Assembly: GCA_022842825.1 (NCBI GenBank)
Contig: JALHOU010000017.1
Coordinates: forward strand, 1 to 41,265
Direction of reading: 5' to 3'
DNA from: Rubrivivax sp.
GTDB lineage: Bacteria; Pseudomonadota; Gammaproteobacteria; Burkholderiales; Burkholderiaceae_C
DNA length: 41,265 nt
Below are positions 240 to 21,301 of the stretch, in pieces. The position numbers and the translations under genes are program-made. The notes under the pieces were generated by a model, which worked only from the letters and a program-made list of their open reading frames with translations, made no database searches and had not been told where the DNA came from. The stretch's first letter is position 1; every line of letters begins with the position of its first letter.

Positions 240-324
240 GCCGACGTGGTGAAATTGGTAGACACGCTATCTTGAGGGGGTAGTGGCGAAAGCTGTGCGA
301 GTTCGAGTCTCGCCGTCGGCACCA
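240..324 (+). tRNA. tRNA-Leu (anticodon GAG)
   Basis: Acceptor stem GCCGACG (240-246) pairs with CGTCGGC (314-320), followed by ACCA. Anticodon stem/loop CTATC-TTGAGGG-GGTAG gives GAG. Long variable arm and GTTCGAGTC T-loop are present. Confidence 0.95.
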
Positions 325-1391: not shown

Positions 1392-1991
1392 ATGACGCAG
1401 AAACTCGATCAACTGCAGGCCGCGCTTCAGTCCACGCTCGGCGAGCGCATCCGCTCGTTCGTGCGCGCGCGCGGCGAGGTCACGATCACGGTGTCTGCCG
1501 AGCACTACCTCGAGACGGCGCGCTTGCTGCAGTCGCACGAGGCATTGAAGTTCGAGCAGCTTGTCGACCTGTGCGGCGTCGACTATTCCGACTACCGCAA
1601 CGAGCCGTGGCAGGGCCCGCGCTTCTGCGTCGTCTCGCACCTGCTGTCGGTGGCGCGGAACTGGCGCGTGCGCCTGAAGGTCTTCGCGCCCGACGACGAG
1701 CTGCCGCAGGTGGCCTCGGTCACCGAGGTGTGGAACTCGGCCAACTGGTTCGAGCGCGAGGCCTTCGACCTCTACGGCATCATCTTCGAAGGCCACGTCG
1801 ACCTGCGCCGCATCCTCACCGACTACGGCTTCATCGGCCATCCGATGCGCAAGGACTTCCCGGTCAGCGGCCACGTCGAGATGCGCTACGACGAGCAGAA
1901 GAAGCGCGTCATCTACCAGCCCGTGACCATCGAGCCGCGCGAGGTCGTGCCGCGCGTGGTGCGCGAAGACCAGTACGGCGGGACGCACTGA
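1392..1991 (+). CDS. nuoC: NADH-quinone oxidoreductase subunit C
   Basis: [65 protein letters not shown]; 199 aa. Confidence 0.98.
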
Positions 1992-2000
1992 CTCCGAGCC

Positions 2001-3254
2001 ATGGCCGAGATCAAGAACTACACGCTCAACTTCGGGCCGCAGCACCCGGCGGCGCACGGCGTGCTGCGCCTCGTGCTCGAGCTCGACGGCGAAGTCATCC
2101 AGCGCGCCGACCCGCACATCGGCCTCTTGCACCGCGCCACCGAGAAGCTGGCCGAGACGCGCACGTACATCCAGAGCCTGCCCTACATGGACCGGCTCGA
2201 CTACGTGTCGATGATGTGCAACGAGCACGCCTACTGCCTGGCGATCGAGAAGCTGCTCGGCATCCCGGTGCCCGAGCGCGCGCAATACATCCGCGTCATG
2301 TTCGCCGAGCTGACGCGCCTGCTGAATCACCTGCTCTGGCTGGGCTGCCACGGCCTGGACTGCGGTGCGATGAACATCTTCATCTACTGCTTCCGCGAGC
2401 GCGAGGACATCTTCGACATGTACGAGGCGGTGAGCGGCGCGCGCATGCACGCGGCCTACTTCCGCCCCGGGGGCGTGTACCGCGACCTGCCCGACAGCCT
2501 GCCTCAATACCAGGTCAGCCGCATCAAGAACGAGCGCGCCATCAAGGCGCTCAACGCCAACCGCCAGGGCTCTCTGCTCGACTTCATCGACGACTTCGTC
2601 AAGCGCTTCCCGAAGTATGTCGACGAGTACGAGACGCTGCTCACCGACAACCGCATCTGGAAGCAGCGCACGGTGGGCATCGGTGTCGTCACGCCCGAGC
2701 GGGCGCTCAACCTCGGCTTCACCGGCGCCATGCTGCGCGGCAGCGGCATCGCCTGGGACCTGCGCAAGCAGCAGCCCTACGACGTGTACGCGAAGATGGA
2801 CTTCGACGTGCCCGTGGGCGTCAATGGCGACACCTACGACCGCTACCTCGTGCGCATCGAGGAGATGCGGCAGTCCAACCGCATCATCCGCCAGTGCGTG
2901 GATTGGCTGCGCGCCAACCCCGGACCGGTCATCACCGACAACCACAAGGTGGCGCCGCCGCCGCGCGTGGGCATGAAGGCCAACATGGAGGAGCTGATCC
3001 ACCACTTCAAGCTCTTCACCGAGGGCATGCACGTGCCCGAGGGCGAGGCCTACGCCGCGGTGGAGCACCCCAAGGGCGAGTTCGGCATCTACCTCGTGAG
3101 CGACGGGGCCAACAAGCCTTATCGCATGAAGATCCGCGCGCCCGGCTTCGCCCACCTTGCGGCGCTGGACGAGATGGCACGCGGGCACATGATCGCTGAC
3201 GCCGTGGCCATCATCGGCACGATGGACATCGTGTTCGGCGAGATCGACCGTTAG
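2001..3254 (+). CDS. nuoD: NADH-quinone oxidoreductase subunit D
   Basis: [43 protein letters not shown]; 417 aa. Confidence 0.98.
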
Positions 3255-3273
3255 GCCCCAGTTGAGCGCGACC

Positions 3274-3768
3274 ATGAGCTTCGTCATCTCGCCCGCGATG
3301 CGCGCCCGCTTCGACAAGGAAGTGGCCAAGTACCCCGCCGAGCAGAAGGGTTCGGCGGTGATGGCCTGCCTGGCCATCGTCCAGCACGAGCGGGGCTGGG
3401 TCAGCCCCGAGGCCGAGGCGGCCGTGGGCCAGTACCTCGGCATGCCCGCCATCGCGGTGCACGAGGTCACGACCTTCTACAACATGTACAACCAGCAGCC
3501 GGTGGGCAAGTACAAGCTCAACGTGTGCACCAACCTGCCCTGCGCGCTGCGCAGCGGCGACACGGCCCTCGAGCACCTGTGCCACAAGCTCGGCGTGGAG
3601 CCCTACGGCACCACCGCCGACGGCACCTTCACCGTGCAGCCCAGCGAGTGCCTCGGTGCCTGCGCCGACGCGCCGGTGATGCTCGTCAACGACCGCCAGA
3701 TGCTGAGCTTCATGAACAACGCCCGCCTCGACGAGCTGGTCGAGACGCTGAAGGCGGCCAAGGACTGA
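3274..3768 (+). CDS. nuoE: NADH-quinone oxidoreductase subunit E
   Basis: Thioredoxin-like [2Fe-2S] ligands CTNLPCALR and [13 protein letters not shown] at 3274 preferred over the TTG at 3262 in the ORF track. Confidence 0.95.
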
Positions 3769-3776
3769 CGCACACC

Positions 3777-5192
3777 ATGGCCGATCTCAAGAACCTGCTG
3801 TCCAAGTTCCAGGCCACCGGCCGGGAGACCTGCTTCCACGGCCGCCACGTCAATGCCCAGATCTACGCCGGGCTCGATGGCAGCAACTGGCGTCTGGCCG
3901 ATTACGTCAAACGGGGCGGCTACACCGCGCTGAAGAAGATCCTCGCCAAGGATGCGAATGGTCCAAGTGAGGCGGGCAACGAGGGCCTGACCCCGGACCA
4001 GGTCATCGCCGAGCTCAAGCTCTCGGCGCTGCGCGGCCGGGGCGGCGCCGGTTTCCCCACCGGCCTCAAGTGGAGCTTCATGCCACGCCAGTTTCCGGGC
4101 GCCAAGTACCTCGTCTGCAACAGCGACGAAGGCGAGCCCGGTACGTGCAAGGACCGCGACCTGCTCGCCTACAACCCGCACATCGTCATCGAAGGCATGG
4201 CCATCGCCGCCTACGCGATGGGCGTCAAGACGGGCTACAACTACATCCACGGCGAGATCTTCGAGGTCTACCAGCGCTTCGAGGAGGCGCTGGAAGAGGC
4301 GCGGGCCGCCGGCCTCCTGGGCGACAACATCCTCGGCAGCGGCTTCAGCTTCCAGTTGCACGCGCACCACGGCTTCGGCGCCTACATCTGCGGCGAGGAA
4401 ACGGGCCTGCTCGAGAGCCTCGAGGGCAAGAAGGGCCAGCCGCGCTTCAAGCCGCCGTTCCCGGCCAGCTTCGGCCTCTACGGCAAGCCGACCACCATCA
4501 ACAACACCGAGACCTTTGCCGCGGTGCCGTGGATCATCAACCACGGCGGCCAGGCCTACCTCGAGTGCGGCAAGCCGAACAACGGCGGCACCAAGATCTT
4601 CAGCGTCGTCGGCGACGTCAACATGCCGGGCAACTTCGAAGTGCCGCTCGGCACGCCGTTCGCCAAGCTGCTCGAGCTCGCCGGCGGCGTGAAGGGAGGG
4701 GCGCTGAAGGCGGTGATTCCCGGCGGCTCGTCGGCGCCGGTGCTGCCAGCCAAGACGATGATGGACATCACGATGGACTACGACGCCATCGCCAAGGCCG
4801 GTTCGATGCTGGGCTCGGGCGCCGTCATCGTGATGAACGAGCATCGCTGCATGGTCAAGAGCCTGCTGCGCCTGAACTACTTCTACATGCACGAGAGCTG
4901 CGGCCAGTGCACGCCCTGCCGCGAGGGCACAGGCTGGCTCTGGCGCCTCATCGACCGCATCGAGCATGGCAAAGGCAAGAAGGAGGACCTCGACCTGCTC
5001 GAGTCGGTCGCCTTCAACATCAAGGGCCGCACGATCTGCGCGCTCGGCGATGCCGCGGCCATGCCGGTGGAGGGCATGCTGAAGCACTTCCGCGACGAGT
5101 TCGTGTTCCACATCGAACACAAGACGTGCAGGGTTGGGCCGCAAGCGCAAGTGCGCGAGTCGCGCGCGCCGGGACAGGCGGAGACGGTATGA
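3777..5192 (+). CDS. nuoF: NADH-quinone oxidoreductase subunit F
   Basis: [78 protein letters not shown] at 3777; the ORF-track start at 3525 is an over-extension into nuoE. Confidence 0.97.
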
Positions 5193-19609: not shown

Positions 19610-20611
<1,002 letters not shown>

Positions 20612-20682
20612 GTTGTGGCCTTGCCCCCGCGCTGCTCGAGGGCCGCTCTCAGACACTCCCCGACTTCACCGTGGTCTCTGGA

Positions 20683-20718
20683 GAGCCGGATGCATAGCGA
20701 AAGGTGCACGTCCGGTTC
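20683..20718 (+). ncRNA. Group II intron domain V-like hairpin (orphan intron 3' fragment)
   Basis: GAGCCGGAUGCAUAGCGAAAGGUGCACGUCCGGUUC. An 8-bp basal helix (GAGCCGGA/UCCGGUUC) contains the AGC triad; 2-nt CG bulge (20709-20710) on the 3' strand; upper helix UGCAU/GUGCA; GAAA tetraloop. No intron-encoded RT ORF nearby. Confidence 0.8.
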
Positions 20719-20740
20719 GGCGAGGGGGCACGCGCAACTG

Positions 20741-20802
20741 CCCGCCGCGAGATTGGCGCGGTGCGCGTGTTCGCTTCGTCGCGGGAAAACCCGCCGCGAG
20801 AT
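20741..20802. repeat. 13-bp direct repeat CCCGCCGCGAGAT, two copies (20741-20753 and 20790-20802)
   Basis: Two identical 13-mers 49 bp apart in the noncoding gap after the domain V-like element. Confidence 0.8.
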
Positions 20803-20860
20803 CCTCTGCGCCTTTCCAAGGGTTGCCGCGCGCCTTTTTCGAGGGACTTCGCCAAGCCTG

Positions 20861-21301
20861 TCAGGCCGCCTGTAGCTTCTTCACCAGCCCGCGCAGCGCC
20901 AGCAGGTACCCCTCCACCCCGAACCCCACGACGATGCCCGCCGCGATCTCCGAGAGGTAGCTGTGGTGCCGGAACGGCTCGCGAGCATGCACGTTCGAGA
21001 CGTGGATCTCGGCGAACGGGATCGCCGTGCCGGCGAAGGCATCGCGGATGGCCACGCTCGTGTGCGTGTAGGCGCCGGGGTTGATGACGACGCCGGCCAC
21101 GCCCTCGGTGCGCGCGGTGTGGATGCGGTCGACGATGCCGCCCTCGTGGTTGCTCTGGAAGCAGGCCACCTCGATGCCGAGTGCCGCGCCGGCCTCGCGC
21201 ACCATCGCCTCCACCTCGGGCAGCGTGGTGTGGCCGTACTTGGCCGGCTCGCGTGTGCCCAGCAGGTTGAGGTTGGGGCCGTTGATGAGCAGGATCTTCA
21301 T
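20861..21301 (-). CDS. aroQ: Type II 3-dehydroquinate dehydratase
   Basis: 146 aa; [76 protein letters not shown]. Confidence 0.97.

What the first reader, a model, noticed from the sequence alone, without database searches (positions are those of the whole stretch)
20683..20718. Orphan group II intron domain V hairpin between an LLM oxidoreductase and the quinate/shikimate genes
Seen directly: GAGCCGGAUGCAUAGC-GAAA-GGUGCACGUCCGGUUC, with an 8-bp basal helix containing AGC, a 2-nt bulge, a GAAA tetraloop and a 16-nt 3' strand. Established: this is the layout of group II intron domain V, the catalytic core, normally 34 nt. Here the 5' strand has 2 extra nt (A20696, G20697) near the loop. Only about 70 nt separate it from the upstream CDS and no RT/maturase ORF is present. 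Inference: a 5'-truncated intron relic or a co-opted domain V hairpin sitting in the gap between convergent genes.
Basis: partly seen in the sequence, partly recalled or inferred. Interest (0 to 1): 0.72.

Follow-up and report, generated by a model that had tools for sequence, protein, structure and literature searches.

The report
Truncated group II intron remnant
The hairpin is a genuine piece of a group II intron (a mobile self-splicing RNA), but it is only a dead 114-base leftover of one copy in the gap between two genes, of a kind that is common in bacteria.

Summary
In detail: window 20683-20718 (+) is a group II intron domain V (DV). DV belongs to a 114-nt fragment (20659-20772) of an intron's 3' end, 92% identical to an intact RT/maturase-bearing intron on Variovorax sp. 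WDL1 plasmid 4 and 90-92% identical to copies on beta-proteobacterial contigs. The fragment keeps the last 12 codons and stop of the maturase (PDFTVVSGEPDA*, TAG inside DV), all of DV, and domain VI up to just before the branch point. It has lost DI-DIII, nearly all of DIV/ORF, the branch adenosine and the 3' splice site, so it cannot splice or move. Two domain VI pairs are broken. The "two extra nucleotides" in DV are normal for this intron lineage. No other DV and no maturase were found in the assembly. A same-genus genome with the same gene order has a 45-nt gap and no DV (249 nt here). Orphan DVs occur in other genomes of the genus, and published surveys report many truncated copies. Nothing supports co-option, though expression was not testable. 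Ordinary; low interest.

The parts
20659..20772 (+). group II intron 3'-end fragment, whole (about 114 nt)
   Evidence: 92% identical, ungapped, to L033 4000-4113 (Variovorax WDL1 intron) and 90-92% to L067-L071; identity stops abruptly at both ends
20659..20697 (+). last 12 codons and TAG stop of the intron-encoded RT/maturase (PDFTVVSGEPDA*); the stop lies inside DV
   Evidence: translation aligns with PDFTVVPGEPDA* of the intact maturase
20683..20718 (+). domain V (36 nt), no substitution private to the window
   Evidence: RF00029 37.3 bits; alignment; fold
20722..20772 (+). domain VI, incomplete: 5' arm, loop and most of the 3' arm; two distal pairs broken (20743/20754, 20745/20752); the branch A and 3' splice site are missing
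   Evidence: alignment to the intact 3' end GUGCUCUACUCAAC, fold and pair check
19610..20611 (+). upstream neighbour: LLM class (luciferase-like) oxidoreductase, MsnO8 family
   Evidence: PF00296, TIGR03558 445 bits
20861..21301 (-). downstream neighbour, convergent: AroQ, type II 3-dehydroquinate dehydratase
   Evidence: PF01220, TIGR01088 198.5 bits

Best explanation
A dead remnant of one group II intron copy. At some point a retroelement intron of the lineage found intact in Variovorax sp. WDL1, or DNA carrying it, entered this genome. Deletion or truncated integration left only the last part of the maturase ORF, domain V and most of domain VI in the gap between the LLM oxidoreductase gene and aroQ. 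Without domains I-III, the branch adenosine and the 3' splice site it cannot splice, be mobilised or act as an intron. If transcribed by read-through, it would only form a passive hairpin. Shown: homology, truncation at both ends, broken pairs, no maturase found elsewhere in the assembly, absence from the syntenic relative. Inferred: the route of entry and the order of the deletions.
For: 114-nt ungapped 92% match to the ltrA-bearing intron of Variovorax WDL1 and 90-92% to beta-proteobacterial contigs. RF00029 37.3 bits here against 47.9-52 in intact copies. Last 12 maturase codons in frame. Homology ends 7-8 nt before the intact intron's 3' end. Two domain VI pairs (of 31 DV+DVI pairs checked) are broken. 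Only one DV and no GIIM maturase domain in G000, while the same search finds GIIM over cut-off in G035, G023 and G140. Sibling G012 has the same LLM-aroQ order with a 45-nt gap (249 here) and no DV hit in its genome. DVs without a detectable maturase also occur in other genomes of the genus. Literature: a majority of bacterial group II intron copies are truncated (PMC4028801); 111 fragments, 55 distinct, in 90 Enterobacteriales strains, generally without an intact copy of the same intron in the genome (PMC3522654).
Against: DV carries none of the 8 window-private substitutions (0 of 38 nt against 8 of 76 elsewhere; Fisher p = 0.05). This could be read as retained selection, but DV is also nearly invariant in intact introns, so the 8 changes may predate truncation. 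The assembly is 95.6% complete in 502 contigs, so an intact copy collapsed or lost as a repeat cannot be excluded.
Confidence: 0.94

Rival explanations
1. Co-opted DV hairpin: the remnant serves as a 3'-end structure (transcript stabiliser, spacer or terminator) for the convergent LLM and aroQ genes.
For: It lies between convergent genes and folds well (z = -3.6; z = -2.9 with DVI). DV has no private substitution. PMC5894124 speculates that a persisting fragment, FRE652, may be a cis element.
Against: No terminator-like site in 20550-20900 on either strand. The syntenic relative G012 lacks the insert, so there is no sign of conservation. Adjoining DVI pairs are broken. A stable fold is inherited from the intron and is not evidence of a new role.
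Confidence: 0.04
2. Part of a fragmented, trans-splicing or trans-complemented intron whose other pieces lie elsewhere in the genome.
For: DV and the flanking RNA are intact enough to fold.
Against: The branch point and 3' splice site are absent, no exon of a split gene is apparent on either side, and no maturase or other DV was found in the assembly.
Confidence: 0.01
3. Chance hairpin that resembles DV.
For: Score is under the RF00029 gathering cut-off.
Against: 114-nt 92% homology that includes the maturase C-terminus; genome-wide E = 2.1e-5.
Confidence: 0.001

Closest known systems
Group II intron of Variovorax sp. WDL1 plasmid 4 (ltrA WP_068683952.1; NZ_LR594692.1)
   Same: 92% identity over 114 nt: maturase C-terminus, DV and DVI in the same order
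   Different: The Variovorax copy has a 507-aa RT/maturase (TIGR04416) and a complete 3' end; the window copy lacks almost everything 5' of DV and the last 7-8 nt of the intron
Fragmented bacterial group II introns, e.g. FRE652 in Sinorhizobium (PMC5894124) and the fragments counted in Enterobacteriales (PMC3522654)
   Same: Immobile remnant of a retroelement intron left in the chromosome or plasmid
   Different: FRE652 keeps DI-DIII and part of DIV and recurs across strains; this one keeps DV and most of DVI and was found in one genome only

Membership tests
Group II intron (RF00029), by descent | Domain V hairpin with AGC, 2-nt bulge and GNRA-type loop, recognised by the covariance model | tested here: met
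   below the gathering cut-off but E = 2.1e-5 genome-wide
Group II intron (RF00029), by descent | Sequence homology to introns that carry an RT/maturase | tested here: met
   92% over 114 nt to the Variovorax intron with RT/maturase
Functional group II intron | Domain VI with bulged branch-point adenosine and 3' splice site (AY) | tested here: not met
   Homology stops before UACUCAAC
Functional group II intron | Domains I-III with exon-binding sites and 5' GUGYG end | tested here: not met
   Only 47 nt lie between the LLM stop codon and the fragment
Functional group II intron | Intact intron-encoded RT/maturase, in cis or elsewhere in the genome | tested here: not met
   Only the last 12 codons here; none found in the assembly; the assembly is incomplete
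Co-opted regulatory RNA | Conserved position and structure across related genomes | tested here: not met
   Absent from syntenic G012, the only relative found with LLM beside aroQ
Co-opted regulatory RNA | Stable discrete transcript | not testable with these tools
   needs RNA-seq

The most novel reading that the evidence does not exclude
The retained DV-DVI hairpin has been kept as a cis-acting RNA element between the convergent LLM and aroQ transcripts, with DV preserved while domain VI decays.
Probability: 0.03. Interest if true: 0.45.

Novelty: new member of a known kind. Interest (0 to 1): 0.08.

Why it matters
Little beyond annotation: it is a clean example of a group II intron remnant that falls just under Rfam's cut-off and would go unannotated. 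It records a past visit of a mobile intron to a genome in which no intact copy was found.

Tried and rejected
An exact DV pattern search of viral contigs gave nothing. The whole gap has no second copy in the genome. The rest of the gap (20612-20658 and 20773-20860) gave no convincing match: the best plasmid and phage matches all lay within the first 113 query bases, and matches elsewhere in relatives are short and marginal. I considered, and did not pursue, an assignment to a named class (for example RmInt1/class D): the Variovorax maturase (507 aa) is 59% identical over its length to a Sinorhizobium meliloti pSymA homologue, but no class-labelled reference was compared.

Full report
Observation. 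The 36-nt sequence is present exactly as described at 20683-20718 on the + strand. It is far beyond chance: with three mismatches allowed it occurs once in the window and never in 100 shuffles. Rfam RF00029 matches 20681-20807 with 37.3 bits, E = 1.1e-5 for a 701-nt stretch and 2.1e-5 for the whole 5.7-Mb assembly. It misses the curated cut-off of 40 bits, so a default Rfam scan does not report it. The predicted fold is the described hairpin.

What it is. A blastn of 20660-20840 against plasmids gave a 92% match over 113 nt to an annotated group II intron RT/maturase region of Variovorax sp. WDL1 plasmid 4. Realigned, homology runs without gaps from 20659 to 20772. A collection scan with the DV core found five further copies on contigs from beta-proteobacterial genomes, plus WDL1 itself, all 90-92% identical to the window over the same stretch. 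Where their contigs extend far enough, the other copies continue on both sides; the window does not. Upstream, the Variovorax maturase runs 507 aa (RVT_1 and GIIM; TIGR04416). The window keeps only its last 12 codons and stop, PDFTVVSGEPDA* against PDFTVVPGEPDA*. Downstream, the other copies read GUGCUCUACUCAAC and then soon differ from one another, which places the intron end there, while the window reads GUGUUC and then unrelated sequence. The bulged branch adenosine (inferred to be the A of CUACUC, 7 nt from the end) and the 3' splice site are therefore missing.

The 'two extra nucleotides'. All nine homologues compared have a DV of the same 36-nt length, with a distal stem of the form GCRYARCGAAAG, so this is a lineage trait and not an oddity of this copy. 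The homologues score 47.9-52 bits with RF00029, which indicates that the window's low score comes from its damaged domain VI.

Decay. The window has 8 private substitutions in 114 nt, whereas the six closest copies of the lineage differ from one another at 0-6 positions. Two of the private changes sites break pairs of the distal domain VI stem (20743/20754 and 20745/20752; 2 of 31 pairs checked). None falls in DV (0 of 38 against 8 of 76, Fisher p = 0.05). I do not read that as selection on the relic, because DV is also nearly invariant in the other copies.

Genome context. The fragment lies in a 249-nt gap between an LLM class oxidoreductase gene (MsnO8 family) and a convergent aroQ. In same-genus genome G012 the same two genes are neighbours with a 45-nt gap, and G012 has no RF00029 match at E <= 0.001. 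Both flanks in the window are collinear with G012, so a chimeric contig at this point is unlikely. The window's assembly holds no other DV and no GIIM maturase domain, while the same GIIM search finds several over cut-off in G035, G023 and G140. The assembly is 95.6% complete in 502 contigs, so a missed repeat copy is possible.

How unusual. Of 149 related genomes searched, 36 (the window's own among them) carry an RF00029 match at E <= 0.001. Of the 50 DV loci that I examined, 39 had at least 1 kb upstream, and 6 of these (L077, L114, L115, L118, L122, L124; four of them from the same genus) gave no maturase match with a profile built here, while several others gave only partial ones. The profile is rough and divergent maturases could be missed. 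Most of the remaining loci sit at contig ends. The literature agrees: most bacterial group II intron copies are truncated (PMC4028801), and 111 fragments were counted in 90 Enterobacteriales strains, generally with no counterpart of the same intron in the same genome (PMC3522654).

Verdict. An ordinary, inactive group II intron remnant. Descent from a group II intron is established. Membership among functional group II introns fails on three tested features (no DI-DIII, no branch point or 3' splice site, no maturase). Co-option is not excluded, since expression could not be tested, but nothing here supports it.

Noticed in passing
L033 1436-1552 and about 1890-4122: In Variovorax WDL1 the intact intron interrupts a transposase-like ORF downstream of an ALIL frameshift pseudoknot (RF01497, 116.7 bits); the 3' exons of L070 and L071 look like the same transposase region, so this lineage probably homes to an IS3-family transposase site.
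   Followed up: partly
window 20741-20753 and 20790-20802: Exact 13-nt direct repeat CCCGCCGCGAGAT, one copy inside the relic's domain VI and one just outside it; origin unexplained.
   Followed up: no
window 20612-20658 and 20773-20860: The rest of the enlarged gap (about 135 nt beyond the fragment, against 45 nt in total in G012) has no identified source.
   Followed up: partly
window 240-324: tRNA-Leu(GAG) gene near the start of the window.
   Followed up: no
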